The notes beneath the pieces are model-generated. The model was not told the origin of the DNA and ran no database searches. It saw nothing but the letters and a program-made list of their open reading frames with translations. A DNA stretch of 64,000 nt from Leptolyngbya sp. SIO1E4 (GTDB taxonomy: Bacteria > Cyanobacteriota > Cyanobacteriia > Phormidesmidales > Phormidesmidaceae): the NCBI GenBank assembly GCA_010672825.2, contig JAAHFU020000002.1, positions 1,190,001-1,254,000 on the forward strand. The letters are read 5' to 3'. The position numbers were made by a program, and so were the translations under genes. Positions 14,399 through 63,636 of this stretch are shown here, one piece after another. Position 1 is the stretch's first letter. Each line of letters starts with the position of its first letter.

Positions 14399-14429
14399 AG
14401 CTGTCGAAAACTAATATGTCCGTTCAAGG

Positions 14430-14697
14430 TCAATGATGATCGCACACTTCCGCATAAGGACAAATCCCGCAATTTGTCTCGGAAGGGTTTGGGATAAAGT
14501 CGCTTTTCATCAGTCCGTTGATCAGTTTTGAGGCTGAGGATTCCAACTCGCTCAACTGGGTAGAGGTGAAGGTATAGAGTAGATCGTGTCGCAGGTAGGC
14601 GATGTGGGCGTTGGGTTTTGCAGTCGCTTGGCTGTAGGCCCAGAGCTGGAACTGGTGATGCTCGGGGTGGAAGGTGCGATCGCTCCAAGACCAGGTT
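14430..14697 (-). pseudogene. Second, diverged copy of the 3' end of the AddA-like gene
   Basis: The minus strand encodes about 88 residues that closely match the last part of the AddA-like protein at 15508: PEHHQFQLWAYSQATAKPNA, then IAYLRHD, and the Fe-S cysteine cluster CGICPYAEVC. The DNA is alike but clearly diverged from 15520-15775, so it is not a fresh duplication. The copy is in the same orientation as the intact gene and lies on the other side of the toxin-antitoxin pair. It lacks the helicase part and a start. Confidence 0.75.
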
Positions 14698-15507: not shown

Positions 15508-18500
15508 TCAATGCCAATGATGATCGCACACTTCCGTATAAGGACAAATCCTGCAACTCGCTTCAGACGGGGTGGGGGTGAAGTCGCCTTTCACCAGTCC
15601 GCTGACCAGTGTTGATGCTGAGGCTGCCAACCTGCTCAACTGGCTAGGGGTGAACGTATGGAGGCGATCGTGGCGCAGGTAGGCGATGTGGGCGTTGGGT
15701 TTAGCAGTGGCTTGGCTGTAGGCCCAGAGCTGAAACTGATGATGTTCCGGTTGGAGGGTGCGATCGGTTTTGAAATCCAGCACAAAATCCTTACCCACCA
15801 GATCCACAAAGCCGTTAAACGTGATGCCGCCCAGCATTAGCGAAACGGGCAGCTCCCACTGCAAGGCCCCTTCGCGATAGTCGGCAAAGTCAGGCGCGTG
15901 ATGGAAGCTTTCGGCACAGTCCAGGGCATCTTGCATCTGTTCATCGGTCAGGTCAGAAGCGTATTTTTTTAGCTCATCAAAATTGCGGATTTGGTGCTCC
16001 AGGGCTTTGTGGGCCAGCTTCCCGATTGCCATCGCCCCTTCCCCCGAGCCATCGCCCTCTCGATATCCCGGATGCCCTTGCACATAGCGAAACTCAAACC
16101 GCTTAGGACACAGCGCGTACTCACTCAACGCCGTTACCGGCAGTTCTGAAAATCCCGCTCCAGCAGCGTGGGCGAGAATTTGGGTTGGTCGTGGCGGCAA
16201 CGGCGGCGAGACGGGCGGCACGGGTTTTGCCAACTCTGGAATGAACGCCACGCCGTTCGGCTCAATCAAGCCTTCGAGCCCCGGTTGCAGCAGGTCGAGG
16301 CTGCCGCCATTGGGGGATGCCGAAGTGAGAATAAGGCGATCTCGCGCCCGCGTCAGCGCCACATACAGCACCCGCTTGGATTCTTCGCGATCGTCCGCTT
16401 TTTTGTGCTGCTCTAACAACGTGAAAAGAGCTGACTTTTGGCGATCGCCCGCCTCATCTTCCAGCTTGAGAGCCACCCCCAACTCTGGATCGAAGCGAAC
16501 TACCGAGCTATCGACGGACAGGGAACGAGATAAATCTGGCACAATCACTACCGGCCATTCCAGTCCCTTCGACGCATGAATCGTCATGAGGCTCACCGCA
16601 TCGCCCCCCGCCAGCGCCGGACGCGGAATCTTCACCTCGCCCGCTTGAATCTGTTTCAGTCGCCGAACCACCGCCAGCACGTCAAAGCTACTACCCTCCA
16701 GTGATCGCACCAACTCCACAAAGCCTGTCCAGTCCGCCATCCGCCGATCCGCACCGGGAAGATTGGCAATCACGGCAGTGTAGCCTGTAAGGCGATCGCT
16801 CAATTGCAGTAACCGAGTCGGTGCTTCCGTACGACGCGCTACCAGCAGTTCATTGAAAACGGCGTAGGCCCGAACCAGCATGGGATCTTCAGCCGTTTGC
16901 AGGTGCTTCCACCAACTGGTCTTTTCAGGAAGCGACTGAGCAAAGGTGTAAAGGATGCGATCGCTGATCGCAAAGAAGGGACTCCGTAGCACCGCTGCCA
17001 GCGCCAGGCTATCAGTGGGGTCGGCCAACCAGCGCAGCATGGCCCAGGCGTCTTTGGGCTCACGGGTTTCCAGCAGGTTGCCACCACCGGCCTGCAGGAT
17101 GGGAATGTCGCGGGCAGTGATCGCGTTGCCATACAGCTCCAGTGGTCCCCAGGTACGCGACAGGATCGCAATGTCACCGGGACGAATATTACGCAGTTTA
17201 CCGCTGGGCTTGTCATGCACCTGAATCGGTGCGTTCAGCATCTCTTCCACCAGTGCTGCGATCTTCTGCGCTTCCATCCGCCGACAGGATTCGGTATTGG
17301 TGTCGATGGTTTTGTCGTCTTTGTGTTCCTCGTCGACCGTGACCGTGTAGAGCTGAATTTCGGGCGTTGGCTCCAGCAATTCATCGCGGTGGGCTTCCAG
17401 GGGTTGGTGTAAATCAGCCAGAACGGGAGCGAAGACCTGGTTGATTTGGCCGATGAGCGATCGGTGCGTGCGGAAGCTGAGACTGAGTTCCACCGGCTTG
17501 TCATCAATATGGATACGGGCTTGCCAGTCTTGGAACACCCGCACATCCGCTCGCCGGAAGCCATAAATCGACTGCTTCACATCACCCACGATGGTGAGGG
17601 TGGCGTTAGCCGTCAGCTTTTCCAGCAGTTGTCCTTGAATGGGGTTAGTATCTTGAAATTCATCAATCAAAAAGACCTGCCAGCGCTGAGCGTAGTAGTC
17701 CTGCACGGCTGGATCGTCTAAGGCTTGTAAGGCGTAGATTTCCAGGTCATTAAAGTCGAGAAAGCGCTGTTCGTATTTCGCCTGTTGCAAATAGTTCCAA
17801 GTCAAACCAAACGCCTCGCGGATGGTGGGAAGCATGGCTTCAGTTTCGTCGTCGAACTCGTTGGGGATGAGGGTGATGAGTCCGGCTTTGATAGCGTCTC
17901 TTGCCAAGTCTCGAAGCGCCCTGATGGCCTCTTTCACTTCCGTCAAAAGCTCTTTGCCGCCCCAACTCTTTTGACTGCCCACGTTGATTTTGAGATCCGA
18001 TAAAACCTCTAAAGCGTCAGCTAAATCACGACCTTGTTCGAGCGTGGCGATCGCCTCCAACGCCTCTAACCGATAGATATCCAGCTTGTCCCCAGGAGCG
18101 GCATGGGTATTCAAAATTGCTTGTCCGGTATGCCAGTCCTCATTTGTCAATAGATTATCCAGAGCTTGCTTACGCATCTTTTCCAGCGTTGGCAGCCAGG
18201 CAGTGCGATCGCATTCCAAAGCCTCCTTCGCCGTCAGCGGATCGGCCAGCAACGCCAGCAACACATCCCGCATCACCGAAAACGGAATCGTCTCATAGAG
18301 ATGACCGGGCAGTTGCTCCAATGCCACGGCAAAGGTTTCGGCTAGCCAGATGGGACTGTCAATTTCATCCTGAACGGTAAAGTCAGGTGGCACATTGGCC
18401 GGATCGGGATGCTCACGGCAGATACGGGCAGCCAGCGCGTGGAAGGTGCTGATTTGAGCCGCTTCGAGTTCGGCGAGCAGGTCGAAACGGTCGTTCATCT

Positions 18501-18735
18501 GCTGGGCAATGGTTTGGCGAATTCGCGATCGCAACTCGGTCGCAGCCTTCTCTGTAAACGTCACGGCAACCATTTGCAGCGGCGAGTAGCTGGGCTTGGG
18601 TTTCCCGTCGTGCTCAGTCAAAAAGTAGAGATACCGCTCTGAAAGCATGTGGGTTTTGCCTGTGCCTGCCCCAGCAGTGACGGCAACGCTGCTGGAAGTG
18701 TAGGCCGCTTGCGATTGTTGTTCAGTCAGTCCCAT
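15508..18735 (-). CDS. AddA-like UvrD/RecB-family helicase with C-terminal Fe-S nuclease
   Basis: About 1075 residues. The start is placed at 18735 because the helicase begins there (MGLTEQQSQAAY); a longer frame reaching 18816 lies inside the upstream gene. Walker A is AGAGTGKT (21-28), the UvrD motif II is VFLIDEFQDTNPIQ, and helicase motifs up to VLYVALTRARDRLIL are present. The C-terminus is a PD-(D/E)XK nuclease (GFVDLVGKDFVLDFKTDR), framed by the single Cys of LCPKRFEFRY and the cluster CRICPYTEVC, so an iron-staple is expected. This is unlike Bacillus AddA, whose nuclease domain has no Fe-S cluster. It overlaps the AddB-like gene by 14 bp. Its likely role is double-strand-end resection for recombination or degradation of invading DNA. 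Confidence 0.85.
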   Translation of the reverse strand: MGLTEQQSQAAYTSSSVAVTAGAGTGKTHMLSERYLYFLTEHDGKPKPSYSPLQMVAVTFTEKAATELRSRIRQTIAQQMNDRFDLLAELEAAQISTFHALAARICREHPDPANVPPDFTVQDEIDSPIWLAETFAVALEQLPGHLYETIPFSVMRDVLLALLADPLTAKEALECDRTAWLPTLEKMRKQALDNLLTNEDWHTGQAILNTHAAPGDKLDIYRLEALEAIATLEQGRDLADALEVLSDLKINVGSQKSWGGKELLTEVKEAIRALRDLARDAIKAGLITLIPNEFDDETEAMLPTIREAFGLTWNYLQQAKYEQRFLDFNDLEIYALQALDDPAVQDYYAQRWQVFLIDEFQDTNPIQGQLLEKLTANATLTIVGDVKQSIYGFRRADVRVFQDWQARIHIDDKPVELSLSFRTHRSLIGQINQVFAPVLADLHQPLEAHRDELLEPTPEIQLYTVTVDEEHKDDKTIDTNTESCRRMEAQKIAALVEEMLNAPIQVHDKPSGKLRNIRPGDIAILSRTWGPLELYGNAITARDIPILQAGGGNLLETREPKDAWAMLRWLADPTDSLALAAVLRSPFFAISDRILYTFAQSLPEKTSWWKHLQTAEDPMLVRAYAVFNELLVARRTEAPTRLLQLSDRLTGYTAVIANLPGADRRMADWTGFVELVRSLEGSSFDVLAVVRRLKQIQAGEVKIPRPALAGGDAVSLMTIHASKGLEWPVVIVPDLSRSLSVDSSVVRFDPELGVALKLEDEAGDRQKSALFTLLEQHKKADDREESKRVLYVALTRARDRLILTSASPNGGSLDLLQPGLEGLIEPNGVAFIPELAKPVPPVSPPLPPRPTQILAHAAGAGFSELPVTALSEYALCPKRFEFRYVQGHPGYREGDGSGEGAMAIGKLAHKALEHQIRNFDELKKYASDLTDEQMQDALDCAESFHHAPDFADYREGALQWELPVSLMLGGITFNGFVDLVGKDFVLDFKTDRTLQPEHHQFQLWAYSQATAKPNAHIAYLRHDRLHTFTPSQLSRLAASASTLVSGLVKGDFTPTPSEASCRICPYTEVCDHHWH

Positions 18736-21409
18736 CGTGCTTCTCCTTGCGGCTGAGACGGTCGCCCTGGCGACACAGAGCATCAAAATCGCAGTAGGCA
18801 CAGGCCGATCGCCCATTGTCCGGCTGTACCGGATAGTGGCCTTGGTCTAGATGAGTTTTGCAGCGATCAATGGCATCAGGTAGCTCATGTTGTGACGCTC
18901 TGGATGATGTGGATATTTGCTTCCTGCCGCGAATGGAGTAGTAGTAAGCGTTAGCAACTGGCTTATCAGGACAGAGAGACGGCGCAGCCGCTTCTTGATA
19001 AAGCGGCAATTGGATGTCGATAGACGCTTTGCCGTTGCGGTCTTTAATGCCAGAGGGACGACTTTTACCCGTTTTGTAATCGATAAGCACCAAACCATTC
19101 TCGGTGCGATCGATACGATCTACCTGTCCCCGGACTTTGAGCCCATACCACTCACCGCTAAAGTTTGCTTCCAGTTGCAGTGGCTCAGCTCCCTCTGGCA
19201 AAAAGTTGAGATCAGCCAGGGCCAGTCTGAGACATCGTAAATGTTCACTACGACGCAGAGACCAGGAAGGAAGGTCGGTGGGAATGATTGCGGTTTCAGC
19301 GATCGCAAACTTCTCCTCCAATAACTGAGCATCAGTAATATCCAACTCAGGATTAAGCTGTTTTTCTGCCAACACTAGCTCTAAGGCTTTGTGATAGAGC
19401 TGGCCAATCTGGCTGGGGTTCAAATCCTCGTCTACTTCGTCAGGCGGTCCTAATTTCAGCAGCTTGTTGGCAAACCACTTGAACGGACACTGCCCCAAAT
19501 TGCGCAGTTGCGAGGCGCTAAACACCCAGTCGGCATAATCGAGGGCAATGCCCACGATGCCGTCGTACTCGTTGGGGGCGTCACGACTTTCTCGGTGCTG
19601 TTCGACGGTAAAGGCGTGATGCGCTTGAGGCAACACGGTGTCCTCGTATTCCTCCTGATGGCGTAGGCTGGCGCGTCGCAACTCTTCGGGACTGGCGATG
19701 GGCTGGATTGGGGGCACGATTGCATTCAAATCCAACTGCTTTAAATAAGGGCTAGGTAACTGCTCCTGACGGTCTTTGAGTTCGGCATAGGAGAAGGTGA
19801 GGTTGCCATTCGCCGTTTGCAGCAAAGCATAGAACGACAGGGCTTCCCGGCGCGCTTGCTCAGCGGCAGCGGGCAGAGCCAAACCATGCTGCTGGAGCTG
19901 TTGACGCTCAAAGAAATCCAACACCGGATCGTTGCTAACTGTTGCAGGCAGAACGCCTTCGGCCATGCCCAGCACAAAAAGGTGAGCGTACCGGGCACCC
20001 ACCACCGAGGTCGGCTTGTGCAGTTCCACTCCACCACGCCCTGGTTGAGCAGGCACCATGAGAACGTCGAGCAAATCAAGCAATTCTCGGCGAAACTCTG
20101 GCCAGGAGAGGGGCTCACTTCCCGATTTAGCCAATTCAACCAATCCTCGATACAAGGTGTTGAAGGCAATGCTTTCGCGAGACCAGCGGGCGCATCGTTT
20201 GCGTAAATCGAAGCTTTTGAAGCGGTCGTACCACCAGTTCACCCAGGTTTCAGGTTTGCGATCGCGATTGATGCTGGCGAACGCGGTGAGGTCAATGTCG
20301 AGATATTGTTGCGCGATCGCTTCCCACGCGGCAAACCCGACTGGATGTTTACCCCGCACGGTAGCCCAAAAATCCTTGTCGGGGTTGCTGCAGAGGGGAT
20401 GGCTCAACAGCTTTGCGGTCGCTTCAAAGGGCCAACCCGTATCAATTACCTCAATCAGCAAGCTGAGCCATGCGCCTAACCGGGCACTCAGCAGCGGCGT
20501 GTCATACAAAGCACGGAGCGGCACGCCATACTCCCAGGCGATGCCGATGAGCTGGGGGCCATAAGCGGCCTCATCGCGGGCAATGATGGCGATGTCTCTT
20601 GCCGGAGTCCCTGCATTGAGCAGTGCTTTCACCTGCGCTAAGGTGCCCCGCATCTCAGCGTCAAAAGTGCTGTAGCTGTGAGCTTTGATCGAGTGCGGAG
20701 AGCCTGCAACATTCCCAGCATCCCGGCTACTATGGCCGATAAAGACTTGGCTGAGGTGTACCCCGATCACTACTTGCTCGCTCTCTTCTGCCACCACCTC
20801 CCAGCCTTGCTCAACTAACCACTCGACCGACTGCTGTACATCTTGAAACAGGGGTGCAGCAGGAGCCGGAAGAAACAGGACGCTGTCAGGGGCCGCGATC
20901 TCATTCATCCATGCCAATTCATCTCGTCGAGGCTGGAAGTATCCGTAAGCCAAGATTTTTTGCGGTGCAGGCGAAAGTTCAATTGCCCGCCAATACAACT
21001 CACTTAAGTCAATTAGCCTTTCCTTATGCAGCGCTTGCTGAAACGCTTTTGCTACTTGCAAAAGGTGGCTCGTTCGGTTGGAAAAACTGCCGGAGATAGC
21101 GCTTAGGTCCGGGCTGCTTTGGAGCAGCGATCGCACCGTCGGCAACCAGGCATTGGCAGTGCCCAACAGATCATTCGGCTGCACTTTGTCTTGCAAAACC
21201 TGACGAAAGAGGGCCTGCGCTTTGAGTGGGGAGGCGATCGCCCAACCCTGTTGCGCTAAATGTTTAGACGCAAGACTGTTGAGCGATTGGTGGGGTACCC
21301 CTAGGGCACGTGCTGCCAACCGGGAGGCCGTGATGACAATGTGGTCATCGTTTAGCAGTCTTAATGCCTGGAGAGCAGGATAGGAACCTACTTGGATGAA
21401 GCGCACCAT
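18722..21409 (-). CDS. AddB-like Fe-S PD-(D/E)XK nuclease subunit
   Basis: About 895 residues, resembling AddB/RexB. The N-terminus (MVRFIQVGSYPALQAL) lacks a Walker A motif, so the helicase-like part is probably inactive. The C-terminal nuclease is complete: SQLRNLGQCPFKWFANKLL (first Cys), GQVDRIDRTENGLVLIDYKTG (catalytic Asp...Asp-x-Lys), and CAYCDFDALC as the three-cysteine half of the Fe-S site. It is encoded immediately upstream of the AddA-like gene with overlapping ends, so they form one complex. Both partners carrying an Fe-S nuclease is worth checking. HIP1 sites occur inside, so it has lived in cyanobacterial genomes for some time. Confidence 0.83.
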   Translation of the reverse strand: MVRFIQVGSYPALQALRLLNDDHIVITASRLAARALGVPHQSLNSLASKHLAQQGWAIASPLKAQALFRQVLQDKVQPNDLLGTANAWLPTVRSLLQSSPDLSAISGSFSNRTSHLLQVAKAFQQALHKERLIDLSELYWRAIELSPAPQKILAYGYFQPRRDELAWMNEIAAPDSVLFLPAPAAPLFQDVQQSVEWLVEQGWEVVAEESEQVVIGVHLSQVFIGHSSRDAGNVAGSPHSIKAHSYSTFDAEMRGTLAQVKALLNAGTPARDIAIIARDEAAYGPQLIGIAWEYGVPLRALYDTPLLSARLGAWLSLLIEVIDTGWPFEATAKLLSHPLCSNPDKDFWATVRGKHPVGFAAWEAIAQQYLDIDLTAFASINRDRKPETWVNWWYDRFKSFDLRKRCARWSRESIAFNTLYRGLVELAKSGSEPLSWPEFRRELLDLLDVLMVPAQPGRGGVELHKPTSVVGARYAHLFVLGMAEGVLPATVSNDPVLDFFERQQLQQHGLALPAAAEQARREALSFYALLQTANGNLTFSYAELKDRQEQLPSPYLKQLDLNAIVPPIQPIASPEELRRASLRHQEEYEDTVLPQAHHAFTVEQHRESRDAPNEYDGIVGIALDYADWVFSASQLRNLGQCPFKWFANKLLKLGPPDEVDEDLNPSQIGQLYHKALELVLAEKQLNPELDITDAQLLEEKFAIAETAIIPTDLPSWSLRRSEHLRCLRLALADLNFLPEGAEPLQLEANFSGEWYGLKVRGQVDRIDRTENGLVLIDYKTGKSRPSGIKDRNGKASIDIQLPLYQEAAAPSLCPDKPVANAYYYSIRGRKQISTSSRASQHELPDAIDRCKTHLDQGHYPVQPDNGRSACAYCDFDALCRQGDRLSRKEKHDGTD

Positions 21410-26098: not shown

Positions 26099-26192
26099 TA
26101 TAGTGGTCTGCATTCGGATAAAGCATACCCTAAACCCCAAATCCTGGCTCTTTTTGACCAATAGGTATTGGGCCTCACTGAACAAGGCAACA
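26099..26192 (+). repeat. Dispersed TATAGC repeat, degenerate copy
   Basis: A TATAG start, then a C-rich core (CCCTAAACCCCAAATCC), then a CACTGAACAAGGC end. This is the same order as the better copies at 54039 and 54216, with point differences. Confidence 0.65.
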
Positions 26193-26319
26193 GCTTGAAG
26201 CGCTTCCAGTTTCCATTGGATGCCCGAGTCTATCTCAGAAGTTCCAGCTGAGTCCCATAACGAATATTGCACCTGAAGTGCTGGTTAGGACAGTCGGATT
26301 TCCTGAAATCCTTATGCAG

Positions 26320-26366
26320 CAAGGTTTTGATTTCTGCCTTCTGATTTCTGATTTCTGCCTTTTGCT
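26320..26366 (+). repeat. Short tandem TGATTTCTGCCTT-type repeat
   Basis: An imperfect tandem of TTGATTTCTGCCTTC-like units. It is simple-sequence intergenic repeat DNA with no gene. Confidence 0.55.
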
Positions 26367-26383
26367 ACAGTAAGCAGGCTAAA

Positions 26384-31928: not shown

Positions 31929-32247
31929 TCAGGTAATGAAGGCTTGGTCAACGACTTGGCGAAACGGTTGACCAGACTGAATCTGTTTTCGCATGTGGTT
32001 CTTCAGAACAAACCATTGATGCTCAATCGGGTTCAAATCTGGGGAGTAAGGCGGGAGATACAAGAGATGACAGCCCGCCTGTTGAATCAGCGCTTCAATG
32101 CGCCCGCCTTTGTGAAATGAGGCATTGTCACAAATGATGACACTCCCGTAGGGCAGCGCCGGCAAGAGCTGTTCTTCTAGCCAGGTTTCGAAGACTGCGC
32201 GGTTACAGTACCCCTCATAGGTGAGTGGGGCCACCAGTTGATGCTGA
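31929..32247 (-). pseudogene. IS630-family transposase, C-terminal remnant
   Basis: About 105 codons of an IS630/Tc1-type DDE transposase. The second catalytic Asp lies in YGSVIICDNASFHKGGRIE and the last Glu in LPPYSPDLNPIEHQWFVLK. The N-terminal helix-turn-helix and first Asp are missing. The homology stops exactly where the dispersed repeat begins (TATAGC at 32248), so the repeat interrupted the gene or marks a deletion joint. Confidence 0.85.
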
Positions 32248-32380
32248 TATAGCGGTATGCAGACTAATCAAATACGCCCTAGACCCCAAACCCTAGACCC
32301 CAGACCCTAGACCCCAAACCCTAGACCCTGCCTTGCCCCTACCTAGCTCCAGCTGTGCCGAACTCAACTAAACACGGCTC
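32248..32380 (+). repeat. Dispersed TATAGC repeat, copy with expanded heptad tract
   Basis: It begins TATAGCGGTATGCA and ends near ACACGGCTCA. The central tract has about seven CCCTAGA/CCCCAAA/CCCCAGA heptads, against about three in the 96-bp copies, so this copy is longer by about 35 bp. Confidence 0.85.
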
Positions 32381-32426
32381 AGTCGTCCATCCAAAATCGC
32401 CAATCCAAAATCCAAAATCGATCTCA

Positions 32427-34715
32427 TTACTCCCAGTCATGCTCACGCATCTCGTTGACCCGCTGCTCAGCGTCTTCTGGGCTCAGGCCATATTGTTCCA
32501 TCAACACCTGGGGCAGCTGATCGCAATCACGATGGGGGTCGAGGGTTGTGATGTGAATTGGCAGCGCCACATTGCAGAGATAGGGCGAGTTTTCTTCAGT
32601 TAGCTGTGCCAATGTGAGATTTGGGGTATTCCGTAAGTCTGTTTTACCGAGTATGGCGTCGCTGAGGATGGCGAATCTGAGGTCGATGGGTCTGAGGTCG
32701 GCGGAGCTGAGGTCGGCGGCGCTGAGGTCGGCGAAACTGAGGATGGCGAAACTGAGGTCGGCGGATCTGAGGCTGGCGAAACTGAGGTTGGCGGATCTGA
32801 GATTAGCGAAACTGAGGTCGGCGGATCTGAGGTTGGCGGCGCTGAGGTCGGCGGATCTGAGGTCGGCGAAACTGAGGTCGGCGGCGCTGAGGTTGGCGGC
32901 GCTGAGGTCGGCGGCGCTGAGGGAGACGCTTCTTAACGATCGCTGGGCAAGATTGATCTCCTGAAGGGCTCTAACCAAGGGGGCACGGGCAATTTTATTG
33001 CTGTCGGCATTGTAGGAATTAATGACATCCCAGTGGGGCTGCAGTCGATAGTAGGTGGCAACCTGTACCCCGGCGTAGCTGGCGAGTCCGAGAGGAATCA
33101 CCATGCCAAACCCTGCTAACTTGAAGCGATTGTTGCGTCTGTGGGCCAGGCTGCGATTGAGATAATCCTCTACCCGCTTTGACAACGGCAACTCTCCCCC
33201 ATGCTTTTTTCTAAAAGCTTTGGCATCGGTCAGCTGTCGCCCCTGCAGCAGATAGCCGTTCTGTTTCTTTTGGGGTTGCTGGCTCCATTCCTCTGCAGCT
33301 AGCTCAATCTTACGCTGCTGCCGTAGCAGATCGCGATTCTCCTCTAGCCAATTGCGGAGTTGAGGCCAATTGCGGATCAGGGCTTCGTGGGCAATATCCA
33401 CCACCGCGATGCGGGTTCCCTCGGCTTCATCCCCTTGCTCATCCACATCGGTGACTACTAAATTGGCATCGGCCATTCGCTTAAGCACGTCGGCTACTTG
33501 TGACGCGGAGTGCTTGGCGGAAATTAAGGTGTCTTGGGTGACGCGCCGTCGGGTGTCTTCGGTACCTTCGCCTAGTTGCGTCAGGCTGAGAAAAATATGC
33601 TTGGCCGTTTCCTGCTGCGCTGGCGTGAGGGCGGCGTACACTTCATCGGCCCGTTGCTTCAGCGTGCCGGTTACGCCGCCAAATTGGGCGTAGGTGGAGA
33701 GCTTGAGCTGGTTGTCTTGGCGGCGTTGCCACAGTTCTGTCAGGGTGTACTGCAGCAGGGGTAATGTGCCGGGGGACTGCTCCACATCTCTCAGCAGCGT
33801 CTCGACCAGACCGGGTTCTAGGGCGATGCCGGTTTGTCGGGCGGGTTGGGTGATGGCCTGGGTCAGTTCCTCCGGGGTCATGGGCAGAATGGCGGTGAGG
33901 TGCTGCTCGACCTTTTGGGCCAATCCGCCATAGTGCTGTTCAAAGCATTTGCCGACAAAGTCCGATCGCATCGCCAAAATCAGGCACAGCTGTGAGGTCG
34001 CTGCTAGCCCACCGAGCAGGGTGGCAAAAAAGGTTTGTTGCTCGGTGGGGTCTTGGCAGAGGGTAAAGGCTTCCTCAAACTGGTCGATTACCAGCACGAC
34101 CCGCTGGGCTGCGGAGGTTTGCACCAGGCACCGCAGCCCCTCTGCTCCATCTTGAATCAATGCTTCGGAGTCCCGTTGTTGCTTGGCCCGTTCGACTCGC
34201 GGCAACGCTTCATCTACAAACGCTAGGGCCAGATTTTGTAGGGGGTGTTCGCCGGGTACCAGAATGCGAATTTCATCGTTGCCGCCGTCTTTGAGGCGTT
34301 GCAGCAGCCCGGCTCGCAGCACCGAGGATTTGCCGCTGCCAGAGGCCCCGACGATCGCTAAAAAATTGTCTTGAGCCACTTTCTGCAGCAGTGTCTGAGT
34401 CAGCGCTTCTCGACCATAGAAGTAGCGGGAGTCTTCATCATTGCAGTCGAAATAAGACAGCCCTTTGTAGGGGCAGACCGCCGTTTGCGAGGGCGGTTGA
34501 ACGCCTAAAACCTCGTTGAGAATGGCTTGGAGCTTGTGGGTTCCTGGCCCGGCACCTTCCACCCAGTTCAGCAGCTGGGCGGCGCGTTCCCCTTGGGGCG
34601 CAGATGGGGCAGGCAAACTGCCGTCAGGGGGGCTGAGGGCAAACACCAGTTGCTCAAACAGGGCTGGGGGCAGGCTGCTCAGGGTTTTGATGAGAGACAG
34701 GCGATCTGAACTCAT
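32427..34715 (-). CDS. EAD-nSTAND ATPase with C-terminal pentapeptide repeats
   Basis: A 762-residue STAND protein. Residues 1-72 form an effector-associated-domain-like helical module (LFEQLVFAL ... LLNWVEGAGPGTHKLQAIL). The nSTAND1 NTPase follows, with CPYKGLSYFD and SRYFYGRE, Walker A GASGSGKS (123-130), and Walker B VVLVIDQFEEAF. A membrane helix lies near 545-565, then about 100 residues of pentapeptide repeats (A-D/N-L-S/R-x) and a short C-terminal region. STAND proteins switch on by oligomerising when the C-terminal sensor meets a trigger, and the EAD recruits an effector. No effector gene with a matching EAD is adjacent. The repeat part is a 15-bp tandem at DNA level, so repeat number may vary. 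Confidence 0.85.
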   Translation of the reverse strand: MSSDRLSLIKTLSSLPPALFEQLVFALSPPDGSLPAPSAPQGERAAQLLNWVEGAGPGTHKLQAILNEVLGVQPPSQTAVCPYKGLSYFDCNDEDSRYFYGREALTQTLLQKVAQDNFLAIVGASGSGKSSVLRAGLLQRLKDGGNDEIRILVPGEHPLQNLALAFVDEALPRVERAKQQRDSEALIQDGAEGLRCLVQTSAAQRVVLVIDQFEEAFTLCQDPTEQQTFFATLLGGLAATSQLCLILAMRSDFVGKCFEQHYGGLAQKVEQHLTAILPMTPEELTQAITQPARQTGIALEPGLVETLLRDVEQSPGTLPLLQYTLTELWQRRQDNQLKLSTYAQFGGVTGTLKQRADEVYAALTPAQQETAKHIFLSLTQLGEGTEDTRRRVTQDTLISAKHSASQVADVLKRMADANLVVTDVDEQGDEAEGTRIAVVDIAHEALIRNWPQLRNWLEENRDLLRQQRKIELAAEEWSQQPQKKQNGYLLQGRQLTDAKAFRKKHGGELPLSKRVEDYLNRSLAHRRNNRFKLAGFGMVIPLGLASYAGVQVATYYRLQPHWDVINSYNADSNKIARAPLVRALQEINLAQRSLRSVSLSAADLSAANLSAADLSFADLRSADLSAANLRSADLSFANLRSANLSFASLRSADLSFAILSFADLSAADLSSADLRPIDLRFAILSDAILGKTDLRNTPNLTLAQLTEENSPYLCNVALPIHITTLDPHRDCDQLPQVLMEQYGLSPEDAEQRVNEMREHDWE
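32640..32930. repeat. 15-bp tandem repeat coding the pentapeptide region
   Basis: About 18-19 units resembling CTGAGGTCGGCGGAT/CTGAGGTTGGCGAAA in tandem. Read on the minus strand they give A-D-L-S/R-x pentapeptides of the STAND protein. Read on the plus strand, an open frame (32614-32964) gives A-x-L-R-S/L pentapeptides. I treat the plus frame as a by-product of repeat composition, not as a gene. Confidence 0.85.
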
Positions 34716-34962: not shown

Positions 34963-35077
34963 ATGTATACCTGCCGCCGGTCTTGGCAGCGGTTCCCCGT
35001 CGGCTAGGGCACCCTAGCCCCCCAACCCCATACCCTGTCTTGACCCAGGTGTACTGCACTCAACTGAGAAGGGCTAT
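34963..35077 (+). repeat. Dispersed TATAGC repeat, degenerate copy before apt
   Basis: The right half (CCCTGTCTTGACCCAGGTGT, then the ACTGCACTCAACTGAGAAGG end) matches the family well and ends with GGCTAT 11 bp before the apt start codon. The left half is diverged. Confidence 0.6.
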
Positions 35078-35087
35078 CAAACAACCT

Positions 35088-37869: not shown

Positions 37870-38199
37870 CGTTAGCAGTCTCTCAAACTTTATTAATCTA
37901 TCTAGGCAGGGTTTTGAGCGATTCCTGCAGAGGCAAGTCGCCCTCAGGCGCATATCTGTAATAGGTACTATCTCGGAAAACCAGCAGCAACGCATATTCC
38001 TCAAGATAGAGGTTTATTGCCTGTCCGTATCTATCCCAGGGTATAGCTGTTTAACGTTGCCAGTGCTCTACTGTTTGTAGTAGCCCACTAGCCATGACCG
38101 CTTACGCAGGGGTCGTCGCTACCTCAACTGGATGAATCTCTTGGATACTCCCAAGGCTGCATCACCGCCCATACCCCCTCCTTTGAAACCCTCTAGCAG

Positions 38200-38300
38200 C
38201 ACCTGCGGATAAAACACACCCCAAACCCCAAACCCTAAACCCTAGACCCCAAACCCAAACCCCCACCTTGACCCAGGTGTCCTGCCCTCAACATTCTAAA
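38200..38300 (+). repeat. Dispersed TATAGC repeat, degenerate copy before the hybrid sensor
   Basis: The core CCCCAAACCCTAAACCCTAG and the right half CTTGACCCAGGTGTCCTGCC are recognisable. The ends are worn. It occupies the leader of the sensor kinase operon and would be translated only if an upstream ATG at 38268 were used. Confidence 0.6.
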
Positions 38301-38309
38301 GACGAAGCC

Positions 38310-43145: not shown

Positions 43146-43339
43146 TTGAGCAGAAGCAGATCCGCGCTGGAAAACCATAGGAGTTTTGGAGTCCCTCTTA
43201 AATGTTTCTAAGAGTTTAGATGGGTTTCTAAGTTTTTCAGCAGTGATTGCACCCGATCATCAAAATTTCATCACTCAGCCGATGAACTGAGGTTTACTGA
43301 ATGCCCGTAATAATGAGTGAATTTGATGCTGGATATCGC

Positions 43340-43428
43340 CTCGTTCCGTTGAATCCAGGACATTTGGGGCGAGACAGGGCATGGGGGTTAGGGGCTAGGA
43401 TCGGTTTGATCTGAATACAAACCGCGAT
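43340..43428 (-). repeat. Dispersed TATAGC repeat, degenerate inverted copy
   Basis: On the plus strand GTTGAATCCAGGACATTTGG, then CGAGACAGGG and a G-rich core, follow the same order as the inverted copies at 49815 and 63528. Confidence 0.5.
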
Positions 43429-43510
43429 GTAGCCCTGTGTATTTTGGTTTGGGATATCTCGTTTGCTTGAGAGGAACCGAGAATAGAGCCGCGTGCCCCT
43501 GGTTAGCAGG

Positions 43511-45955: not shown

Positions 45956-46049
45956 TCGTAATCGCAGTAGTAGAGTTTGAGCTTTAATTCTACGCGGATC
46001 TGGCGTCCCTCTGGCATGTGCCGTCGCTGTTTACTGGTTTTTAAGCGGT

Positions 46050-46120
46050 TTACAGCGGGATCAGGCATGCTCTATCCTCCAAACTCTAATTCCTACCTTG
46101 ACTCAGGCGCGTCGGACTGA
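46050..46120 (+). repeat. Dispersed TATAGC repeat, weak copy
   Basis: AGCGG near 46055, a worn core TCCTCCAAACTCTAATTCCT and the tail ACCTTGACTCAGGCGCGTCG follow the family order, but many positions differ. Confidence 0.4.
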
Positions 46121-46200
46121 TTCGATGCATGCAATCGATAGTCAGTATGGGAGCTTTCAGTGCCGCTTTGAAGGCCGGTGGCGGCATACTGACGTTGAAA

Positions 46201-49814: not shown

Positions 49815-49920
49815 TATAGCTTTGTTCAGTTAAGTCCAATACATCTCGATCAAGACCGGGTCTAGGGTATGGGGGTTAGGGTTTGGCGGCTAGGGTGTGC
49901 GCTTTCAAACCAGGCGCTAC
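49815..49920 (-). repeat. Dispersed TATAGC repeat, inverted copy
   Basis: It reads TATAGCTTTGTTCAGTTAAG on the plus strand (the complement of the GCTATA end), then a G-rich core GGGTCTAGGGTATGGGGGTT and TTAGGGTTTGG. The other end is diverged. Confidence 0.75.
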
Positions 49921-54038: not shown

Positions 54039-54134
54039 TATAGCGGTATACAGGCTGTTCAAGCACAGCCTAGACCCCAAACCCTAGCCCCTGTCTTGAC
54101 CCAGATGTATTGGATTCAACTGAACAAGGCTATA
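54039..54134 (+). repeat. Dispersed TATAGC repeat, full 96-bp copy
   Basis: It starts TATAGCGGTATACAGG and ends CTGAACAAGGCTATA. The ends TATAGC/GCTATA are inverted repeats. The core is CCTAGACCCCAAACCCTAGC, and the second half is CTTGACCCAGATGTATTGGA. This is the reference copy of the family. Confidence 0.9.
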
Positions 54135-54215
54135 GACGTCCGTGCTCAGCAGCTGCCTTTTCGGTCACCTTTTGCCATGGCATCAGGTCGTGATTTCTTC
54201 CCATCCAGCCAAACT

Positions 54216-54311
54216 TATAGCGGTATGCATGCTAATCAAGCACACCCTAGACCCCAAACCCTAGACCCTGTCTCGACCCGGATGTACTGGACTCACCTGA
54301 ACAAGGCTACA
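54216..54311 (+). repeat. Dispersed TATAGC repeat, second full 96-bp copy
   Basis: Same length and order as the copy at 54039, 81 bp downstream in direct orientation. The right end is GCTACA instead of GCTATA. The two copies flank about 80 bp of unique DNA. Confidence 0.9.
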
Positions 54312-55799: not shown

Positions 55800-55900
55800 A
55801 CACTGGGCGCTACGGATCTTGGGGATGAAGCCCACCCAAACCCCAAACCCCAAACCCTGTCTTGACCCAGATATTCTGGATTCAACGACAAAGAGTATCT
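55800..55900 (+). repeat. Dispersed TATAGC repeat, degenerate copy
   Basis: The C-rich core CCCCAAACCCCAAACCCTGT and right half CTTGACCCAGATATTCTGGA are clear; both ends are worn. Confidence 0.65.
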
Positions 55901-55912
55901 CACGATCGCCTG

Positions 55913-56812
55913 CTAACGGGCACCGGTATTGTCCGTGGGCAAGGTGTTGCGCCAGATAGCATCGGCAACCCGGCAGACATCCATCATCTCTTTGCCATCG
56001 TGAACCCTGAGGATGTCTGCGCCGCCTGCGATCGCCGCACAGCAGGCGGCTGCCGTTCCCCAAACGCGCGCTTTTGCCTCGGGCTGCTGCAAAATCCAGC
56101 CGATGAAGCTTTTACGAGAAGGGCCGATGAGGATAGGGCAGTGCAACGGCCGGAAGGCGGAAATCTGGCGTAGAATCTCTAGGTTTTGAGGGTAGCTTTT
56201 GGCAAACCCAATTCCAGGGTCAATGGCAATTTGACTATGGCTGACCCCTGCTGCAACTGCGGTTTGAACCTGTCGCTCTAAGACCTGATAAATTTCACCG
56301 ATCAAATCTTCGTAGTGGGTATGCTGCTGCATGGTTTCCGGCACCCCGCGAATGTGCATCAAAATGACGGGGACGCCCAGGTCGGCCACGGTCGACAGCA
56401 TGGCAGCGTCGAAAGTGCCCCCAGAAATGTCATTCACAATATCCGCTCCGGCTCGCACAGCGGCCCGCGCCACCCCTGCCTGTGTGGTATCGACGGAGAG
56501 AACCATAGACGCAAGTTTTTCATTGTCATGGGTCCGAATGGCCTCAATGACCGGAACCACCCGGCGAATTTCGTCTTCTAATGAAATTTGCCCTGCCCCA
56601 GGCCGGGTGGATTGTCCCCCAATATCCAAAATGTCTACCCCGGCGGCGGTGAGATTTTTCGCTTGCAGCACGGCGGTTTCCACCGTGTTGAATTGACCAC
56701 CATCGCTAAAGCTATCAGGGGTAACGTTCAGAACCCCCATCACATAGGTGCGATCGCCCCAATGAAAGGCGCGATCGCGCAGGATCCAAGAAGGTATCGT
56801 CGCAGCAGCCAT
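55913..56812 (-). CDS. folP: Dihydropteroate synthase
   Basis: A 299-residue folate-pathway enzyme that joins p-aminobenzoate to dihydropterin pyrophosphate. Signature strands are MGVLNVTPDSFSDGG, DIGGQSTRPGA, VNDISGGTF and DPGIGFAKSYPQN, with the C-terminal LRVHDGKEMMDVCRVADAI. The start is set at 56812 (MAAATIPSW); the longer frame back to 56977 has no homology. Monocistronic. Confidence 0.95.
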   Translation of the reverse strand: MAAATIPSWILRDRAFHWGDRTYVMGVLNVTPDSFSDGGQFNTVETAVLQAKNLTAAGVDILDIGGQSTRPGAGQISLEDEIRRVVPVIEAIRTHDNEKLASMVLSVDTTQAGVARAAVRAGADIVNDISGGTFDAAMLSTVADLGVPVILMHIRGVPETMQQHTHYEDLIGEIYQVLERQVQTAVAAGVSHSQIAIDPGIGFAKSYPQNLEILRQISAFRPLHCPILIGPSRKSFIGWILQQPEAKARVWGTAAACCAAIAGGADILRVHDGKEMMDVCRVADAIWRNTLPTDNTGAR

Positions 56813-59617: not shown

Positions 59618-60253
59618 CTACTCCCGGCGGAAGCTAAAGTCATACCCGGCATATTCCCCCTCTTCATAGAGCACGATGAGCCAGGTCTGAGGATCGAACG
59701 CTAGCGGGTAGGCTTCGCGCTCTGCGATCGCGCCCTCGCGCACTTCAACGGAGTTGAGGGTGCAATAGGGCGCTTCAATGACTTGCTGAACGGCGTCTTT
59801 GGAAGACCGCTCTGGCACCGCGAGCAGCTCTGATAACTCGGCGCGAGAAAGAACCGACTGAGACTGAATTGTTTCCTGGCACACCACGCTGGCTGTTGTC
59901 GGATTTTCTGAGGCTGATTTGGGTACGACCACCAGGGCCGCCAAGGCCAACATGCCGCCACTGGCTAACAACGCCCCCCGCGATCGCGGCTTCCGTCGCA
60001 CCTTTTTTCGGTGTTGAGGTTGTTCAGTCTCCCTTTGGGGTGATCGACGACGGGTCGAGGCTGGTGAAGGTCGTCTGCCGTGGGGCGGCAGAACAGAACC
60101 GCTCTGGGCAGCCATATCTCCCTGACGGGACAGTGCCTGTTGATGGCTGATCTGTTGATGGCTCACCTGTTGGTGACTGGCCTGTTGATGGCTGACCTGG
60201 CGCTGACGGGGGTAGTGATGACTGTAGTGGGAATGAGGATCTGGATAGCTCAT
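59618..60253 (-). CDS. Single-pass membrane protein with SHQQ repeats
   Basis: A 211-residue protein beginning MSYPDPHSHY, with the start set at 60253 on that account. The N-terminal 80 residues are His/Gln/Ser-rich with SHQQ(A/V/I) in tandem and then Arg-rich; the single membrane helix is ALLASGGMLALAALVVVPKS. The C-terminal 90 residues look globular and periplasmic. Not recognised; low-complexity N-terminus may bind metal. Confidence 0.6.
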   Translation of the reverse strand: MSYPDPHSHYSHHYPRQRQVSHQQASHQQVSHQQISHQQALSRQGDMAAQSGSVLPPHGRRPSPASTRRRSPQRETEQPQHRKKVRRKPRSRGALLASGGMLALAALVVVPKSASENPTTASVVCQETIQSQSVLSRAELSELLAVPERSSKDAVQQVIEAPYCTLNSVEVREGAIAEREAYPLAFDPQTWLIVLYEEGEYAGYDFSFRRE

Positions 60254-60469
60254 GGTTTGCCCTCCCCAATAACAAAAACGAGGATGTTCGCCCAATCACT
60301 GACGATTCCCTCAAAACAGGGGCGAAAGGTGCTCGGGCTAATGACTTTTCAATAATAGTACAATTGTATTAAATCCGTAAAGCTGCTAGCAATTTTAAGA
60401 TTTGCTAAGGTGTCCTTGTTGAGAGGTGATTAATTCGCCTCAACGGGGATTAAGCCAGCAAATTGCAGG

Positions 60470-63406: not shown

Positions 63407-63527
63407 AGTTCACTTACCACAAGGTTAAGGAATCAACCTGTGACTACTGCTGTATTGTTTTCGACTAACGGGAGATATGAAGGGATAGAGCACCTATGGC
63501 TAGTGTAAGCGGGAAAAAGCCAGAGTC

Positions 63528-63636
63528 TATGGCTTGTTCAGTTGAGTCCAGCACATCTTGGCCAAGACAGGGTCTAGGGTTTGGGGTCTAGGGTTTGAGG
63601 TCTAGGATCTACTTGATCAGCCTGCATACCGCTATC
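63528..63636 (-). repeat. Dispersed TATAGC repeat, inverted copy
   Basis: On the plus strand it reads TATGGCTTGTTCAGTTGAGT, with a core GGGTCTAGGGTTTGGGGTCT and TAGGGTTTGAGG, and ends CTGCATACCGCTAT. All family parts are present in reverse order. Confidence 0.85.

What the first reader, a model, noticed from the sequence alone, without database searches (positions are those of the whole stretch)
54039..54311. Dispersed ~96-bp repeat family with inverted ends and telomere-like heptads
Eleven copies of varied decay: 26099, 32248, 34963, 38200, 43340(-), 46050, 49815(-), 54039, 54216, 55800 and 63528(-). Best copies are 96 bp with TATAGC/GCTATA ends, a tract of CCCTAGA/CCCCAAA heptads, and a conserved right half (CTTGACCCAGATGTATTGGA-like). 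The heptad tract varies in length (about three units in the 96-bp copies, about seven at 32248). Copies lie in both orientations, only between genes, and often just before start codons. None lies in the island. This combines MITE-like ends with a variable C-rich tract that could form i-motif or G-quadruplex structures.
Basis: seen in the sequence. Interest (0 to 1): 0.75.

Follow-up and report, generated by a model that had tools for sequence, protein, structure and literature searches.

The report
IS630-type MITE with a heptad core
The repeat is a tiny transposon without genes of its own (a MITE), about 96 bp, that inserts at TA sites, sits hundreds of times between genes of this cyanobacterium, and carries inside it the 7-bp C-rich repeats that account for about half of the predicted G-quadruplex motifs in the 2 Mb sampled.

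Summary
All eleven copies are found by a profile HMM, and the window lies in an 8.22-Mb cyanobacterial genome with about 106 copies per Mb (213 in 2.0 Mb read; 0 in the reversed control). The boundaries are fixed. The element is TA-[TAGC...GCTA]-TA. Nine copies match the 96-bp consensus perfectly, about ten paralogous empty sites show one TA where filled sites have two, and the target consensus is ANNTANNT. Its ends are those of an IS630/Tc1-mariner IS: 25-26 of 29 bases agree with IS copies in this and a related genome, and the close IS clade occurs in the three genomes with clear full-length MITE copies. So this is a MITE moved in trans by an IS630-family transposase. Both close IS copies here are broken. 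The core is (CCCTAGA/CCCCAAA)n, three units in 110 of 137 end-paired copies, otherwise mostly changing in steps of seven, with one array of 19. A sister MITE in Oscillatoria sp. CS-180 keeps the ends but has other heptads, mostly with too few C-runs for a G-quadruplex. "Often just before start codons" is wrong: copies concentrate at gene 3' ends and convergent spacers (95 against about 36 expected). G-quadruplex or i-motif function is untested.

The parts
54039..54134 (+). Full-length MITE copy, 96 bp including both flanking TA; 3 heptads; both TATAGC/GCTATA ends intact
   Evidence: 97.6 bits; 121-bit blastn match to the 54216 copy
54216..54311 (+). Full-length MITE copy, 96 bp; right TA mutated (GCTACA); 3 heptads
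   Evidence: 102.4 bits
54245..54268 (+). Heptad core of the 54216 copy: CCCTAGA CCCCAAA CCCTAGA CCC (G-quadruplex motif on the opposite strand)
26099..26192 (+). Diverged MITE copy with both ends recognisable
32248..32382 (+). MITE copy with expanded heptad tract (about 7 units)
   Evidence: two HMM segments, 32248-32300 and 32302-32379
34983..35078 (+). Old MITE copy, left end decayed
38190..38305 (+). Old MITE copy with expanded tract and decayed ends (boundaries approximate)
43334..43429 (-). Diverged full-length MITE copy
46041..46136 (+). Strongly diverged MITE copy
49815..49910 (-). MITE copy with intact right end (TATAGC) and decayed left end
55806..55900 (+). Diverged MITE copy in a convergent spacer, 12 bp from the stop codon of the dihydropteroate synthase-like gene (Pterin_bind) 55913-56812(-)
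63527..63636 (-). MITE copy with 5 heptads (110 bp)

Best explanation
The repeat is a non-autonomous IS630/Tc1-mariner type transposon (a MITE). Two ~29-bp imperfect inverted ends, descended from the ends of an IS630-family insertion sequence, enclose a ~38-bp cargo region made of C-rich heptads and a short spacer. An IS630 transposase supplied in trans binds the two ends, excises the element and joins it to a TA, preferably ANNTANNT, which is duplicated (TSD and target shown; transposase action inferred from the family). The core is probably not needed for movement, because an IS630 relative (ISY100) needs only ~30 bp of each end, so the core can carry a 7-bp minisatellite. A three-unit master (CCCTAGA CCCCAAA CCCTAGA CCC) was amplified by transposition, and individual copies then gain or lose whole heptads, most likely by slippage (1 to 19 units seen). 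Copies persist almost only in intergenic DNA, chiefly between convergent genes. The dispersal of heptads and of predicted G-quadruplex motifs in this genome is thus largely a by-product of MITE transposition.
For: Fixed boundaries and recent spread: 9 perfect 96-bp copies and 80 perfect left ends among 182. TA duplication: about ten independent insertions into other repeats have paralogous empty sites with a single TA, e.g. GGGTTC-TA-GGTAGA with 5 of 5 ungapped empty copies and GATTGTCC-TA-ACTAG with 24 of 25; another copy sits in a heptad tract like that of other MITE copies. Target palindrome: A at -3 and T at +3 together in 23 of 61 copies against 6.7% of intergenic TA sites, p=3e-12. Ends: left against right end 19/29, MITE left end against own-genome IS 25/29 and against the G032 IS 26/29; none of 100,000 shuffles as good for the pairs tested by shuffling. 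The parent ORFs match DDE_3 and HTH_32. Co-distribution: the >=80%-identical transposase clade is in G000, G022 and G032, the genomes with clear full-length MITE copies. ISY100 works with 30 bp of each end, a 24-bp IR and a TA target (PMC2170065). Tract lengths cluster at 10, 17, 24, 31, 38 and 52, and one array has 19 units. 210 of 213 copies are intergenic.
Against: No intact close transposase was found in the genome. Both IS copies share a TGA in the HTH region, one is split by another IS, the other has lost its 3' end, so the mobilising enzyme is either gone, missed, or another IS630. The inverted repeats are imperfect. The penultimate element base (position 4) is A in only 77% of young copies, which is odd for a transposon terminus.
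Confidence: 0.93

Rival explanations
1. The heptad core is functional cargo: a G-quadruplex/i-motif or C-rich RNA element that acts at gene 3' ends (transcription roadblock or insulator between convergent genes) and is kept by selection.
For: About half of the G3+N1-7 motifs in 2.0 Mb (145 of 294) lie in these copies, which cover 1.5% of the DNA. Four subfamily consensuses share an identical 24-nt core although the ends of A and B differ at 15 of 72 positions (hand count). Post-insertion divergence of the core is about half that of the ends (0.019 against 0.034, p=7e-4). Convergent spacers are enriched about 3.5-fold in the youngest copies.
Against: No strand bias relative to the transcribed gene (89 against 79, p=0.49). 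In CS-180 most copies have only three C-runs and different heptads. A second MITE family with a different, not C-rich, core shows the same convergent bias (20 of 35), so placement does not depend on the C-rich core. Part of the slow core divergence may come from hidden subfamilies and from scoring only 24-nt tracts. No promoter-like site and no excess RNA structure at the two copies tested.
Confidence: 0.1
2. The copies are stand-alone heptameric STRR arrays that share flanks by chance or through gene conversion, not a transposon.
For: Heptameric simple repeats are known in cyanobacteria (PMC4692102), and stand-alone heptad arrays occur in relatives such as G048.
Against: 125 of 140 heptad tracts in 2.0 Mb lie inside element hits. 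TA duplication, fixed ends and IS-matching termini are those of a transposon.
Confidence: 0.02
3. REP/BIME-type palindromic element moved by a TnpA-REP (IS200/IS605-like) transposase.
For: Intergenic, high copy number, species-specific.
Against: There is a TA target duplication, which IS200/IS605 enzymes do not make (general knowledge); no stable hairpin beyond shuffled sequence (z from 0.48 to -1.61); the ends match IS630.
Confidence: 0.01

Closest known systems
MITEs of the IS630/Tc1-mariner family, with ISY100 (Synechocystis) as biochemical model (PMC2170065)
   Same: TA target duplication, inverted ends of about 24-29 bp, DDE_3 transposase parent, tolerance of any cargo between ~30-bp ends
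   Different: 96 bp with a heptad minisatellite as core; no intact close parent found in the same genome
BrickBuilt, a P. gingivalis MITE that contains a minisatellite (PMC4596501)
   Same: Intergenic MITE with inverted ends around a tandem repeat
   Different: 23-nt units and 19 copies in BrickBuilt; here 7-nt C/G-rich units, an extrapolated ~880 copies and an IS630 origin
Heptameric G-quadruplex repeats GGGGA(T/C)T of Nostoc sp. PCC7120 and GGGAATC of Xanthomonas (PMC4692102)
   Same: 7-bp G-rich, intergenic, variable-number tandem repeats; oligos of those repeats form G4 in vitro
   Different: Those are described as simple sequence repeats, with MITEs named only as a separate repeat class in the passages read; here the heptads ride inside a mobile element
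MITEs of Anabaena sp. 90 (PMC3542288) and Nezha (cited in PMC10969869)
   Same: Cyanobacterial MITEs; those of Anabaena sp. 90 are mostly intergenic

Membership tests
MITE of the IS630/Tc1-mariner family | Short, non-coding, many near-identical copies with fixed ends | tested here: met
   96 bp, 9 perfect copies, 182 left ends with <=3 mismatches
MITE of the IS630/Tc1-mariner family | Terminal inverted repeats | tested here: met
   19/29 in G000 and 20/29 in CS-180, shuffle mean 7.2, none of 100,000 shuffles reached; imperfect
MITE of the IS630/Tc1-mariner family | TA target site duplication | tested here: met
   About ten paralogous empty sites with a single TA; ANNTANNT target
MITE of the IS630/Tc1-mariner family | Ends match an autonomous IS630-family element | tested here: met
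   25/29 own genome, 26/29 G032, 25/29 CS-180; DDE_3 and HTH_32 ORFs
MITE of the IS630/Tc1-mariner family | Intact mobilising transposase in the same genome | tested here: not met
   Only two close copies in the genome search, both broken. Not a required feature: MITEs often outlive their parent (general knowledge)
MITE of the IS630/Tc1-mariner family | Transposition in trans demonstrated | not testable with these tools
   Needs an experiment or strain series
Cyanobacterial heptameric STRR | Tandem 7-bp units of variable number | tested here: met
   Tract lengths in steps of 7, 1 to 19 units
G-quadruplex forming repeat | Four G3+ runs with short loops | tested here: met
   142 of 213 copies; only 2 of 9 CS-180 copies have >=4 C-runs
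G-quadruplex forming repeat | Structure formed in vitro or in vivo | not testable with these tools
   Needs CD/NMR or in-cell probing
REP/BIME palindrome | Stable palindromic hairpin | tested here: not met
   RNA fold z-scores 0.48 to -1.61

The most novel reading that the evidence does not exclude
IS630-type MITEs are a general vehicle that captures, spreads and renews heptameric G-quadruplex minisatellites in cyanobacteria, and the core, identical across four subfamilies whose ends have diverged, is kept because the structure has a role, for example at 3' ends of convergent genes.
Probability: 0.12. Interest if true: 0.65.

Novelty: new variant of a known kind. Interest (0 to 1): 0.42.

Why it matters
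It links two things reported separately, the intergenic heptameric repeats of cyanobacteria and MITEs, by showing here that a TA-inserting MITE carries the heptads and supplies about half of the predicted quadruplex motifs. It gives a concrete, testable origin for G4-motif dispersal in a bacterial genome and a large set of near-identical natural insertions in which heptad number varies.

Tried and rejected
An early fuzzy-regex scan missed copies because of a best-match flag and was replaced. Higher conservation of the core in 'old' copies looked like strong selection, but the end mismatches fall at subfamily-diagnostic sites; within subfamilies the excess shrinks to about two-fold. A 4-bp TATA duplication was considered because of one IS copy abutting a MITE end (L061), but paralogous empty sites show TA. 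A strand bias of the G-rich strand relative to transcription: none. Matches in plasmid and phage collections: none. Rfam: only a tRNA in the window. No same-genus genome was available, so heptad number between strains could not be compared. Of the other IS630-like elements in the genome (L063-L074), none showed inverted ends like those of the MITE; L063 and L064 share only TATAGC.

Full report
What is there. The two copies named in the finding (54039-54134 and 54216-54311) are 96-bp elements with TATAGC left ends and GCTATA or GCTACA right ends. A profile HMM trained on copies elsewhere in the genome finds all eleven listed copies in the window. The window lies in contig 2 of an 8.22-Mb, 12-contig genome. 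A same-family relative that carries the sister element is Oscillatoria sp. CS-180, so the host is a cyanobacterium. The 29-bp left end occurs 182 times with up to three mismatches, 80 of them perfect, against 0 for the control pattern. Nine listed copies match the full 96-bp consensus perfectly. In 2.0 Mb of contig 1, read contiguously, there are 213 copies and none in the reversed sequence. By extrapolation the genome holds roughly 880.

Anatomy. Consensus: TATAGCGGTATGCAGGCTAATCAAGCACA - CCCTAGACCCCAAACCCTAGACCC - TGTCTTGACCCAGATGTACTGGACTCAACTGAACAAGGCTATA. Left and right ends are imperfect inverted repeats (19 of 29, shuffle mean 7.2, none of 100,000 shuffles as good). At least four subfamilies differ in the ends but share an identical 24-nt core.

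Insertion mechanism, shown by sequence. Copies that landed in other repeats allow comparison with empty paralogues. About ten independent insertions show one TA in the empty site and two in the filled site; one of them sits in a heptad tract like that of other copies. The flanks form a palindromic target, ANNTANNT: both A and T are present in 23 of 61 young copies against 6.7% of intergenic TA sites, p=3e-12. The mobile unit is therefore TAGC...GCTA between duplicated TA.

Parent. The left end is 26/29 identical to the end of a 1-kb IS in a related genome (L053/L184). Its ORFs match DDE_3 (2.5e-33) and an HTH domain, i.e. IS630/Tc1-mariner. The own genome has two copies of this IS at 85% protein identity. 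The end of one matches the MITE at 25/29, but both are broken: a shared TGA in the HTH region, one split by another IS, one truncated. CS-180 has a copy with both ends and two ORFs in different frames (L185). Within the relatives searched, the close transposase clade (>=80% identity) is found in G000, G022 (CS-180) and G032, the three with clear full-length MITE copies; the next best is 68%. ISY100, a cyanobacterial IS630 element, transposes with only 30 bp of each end (PMC2170065). That explains how 29-bp ends suffice and why the core is free to vary. Movement in trans is inferred, not shown.

The heptad core. Among 137 copies with both ends found independently of the core, the tract is 24 nt (three heptads plus CCC) in 110; most others differ by multiples of seven (10, 17, 31, 38, 52). 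One array has 19 heptads next to a recognisable right end. Changes occur in otherwise near-perfect copies (for example C1:1605503, one heptad, 1 end mismatch in total), so the number changes after amplification, most simply by slippage (inference). Of 140 C-rich heptad tracts in 2.0 Mb, 125 lie inside element hits. Sister elements in CS-180 have conserved ends but variable heptads of other sequence (CCCTATT, CCCCACT, CCCTAAT), usually with three C-runs. A G-quadruplex is therefore not a requirement for spread. In this genome, however, 142 of 213 copies carry a quadruplex motif, and they hold 145 of 294 such motifs in 1.5% of the DNA.

Genomic placement. 210 of 213 copies are intergenic; a random 96-mer would be mostly coding 79% of the time (genes from a simple hexamer caller, so absolute numbers are approximate). 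Convergent spacers hold 95 against 36 expected and divergent spacers 21 against 66. The bias does not differ between the youngest and oldest copies (p=0.34), and a second MITE family with a different core shows it too. It therefore reflects where insertions survive or are aimed in general, not a property of the C-rich core. Only 6 copies lie within 30 bp of a start, 72 within 30 bp of a stop.

Is the core selected? For: identical in four subfamilies; decays at about half the rate of the ends within subfamilies. Against: no strand bias relative to transcription, no conservation in CS-180, and possible residual subfamily structure. I treat function as unproven, probability about 0.1.

Comparison with the known. 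The element works like an IS630-type MITE and passes the defining features tested; the one feature not met, an intact transposase in the same genome, is not a requirement. MITEs containing minisatellites (BrickBuilt, PMC4596501) and quadruplex-forming heptamers in Nostoc (PMC4692102) were known separately. Their combination in one IS630 MITE that disperses the heptads was not found in the papers searched, a search limited to open-access text. I rate it a new variant of a known kind.

Noticed in passing
window 26266-26368 (-): Copy of a second TA-flanked MITE-like family (TATAGCAAAAGGCAGAA...GGTGCAATA) whose core is another heptad tract, (GGCAGAA)n; 35 hits in 2.0 Mb of contig 1, 20 of them in convergent spacers.
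   Followed up: partly
L059 and contig 1, e.g. 281374-281470: A third repeat family with TACAGC...GCTGTA ends (13 hits in 2.0 Mb); it serves as the empty-site target for the MITE at C1:1297095.
   Followed up: partly
   Followed up: no
window 31932-32228 (-): Fragment of a distant IS630-family transposase (38% identity, 112-aa frame) directly beside the MITE copy at 32248.
   Followed up: no
element position 4 and its mirror (all copies): The penultimate base of both element ends is variable (77% in young copies) while its neighbours are mostly 94-98%; some copies vary symmetrically (TATC...GATA).
   Followed up: partly
window 32616-32960 and 60120-60224: 15-bp in-phase repeats inside ORFs (32427-34715 and 59618-60295), i.e. 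pentapeptide-type protein repeats.
   Followed up: no
window 14424-14682 and 15508-15766: 259-bp direct repeat, 85% identical, one copy at the 3' end of the 15508-18816(-) ORF.
   Followed up: no
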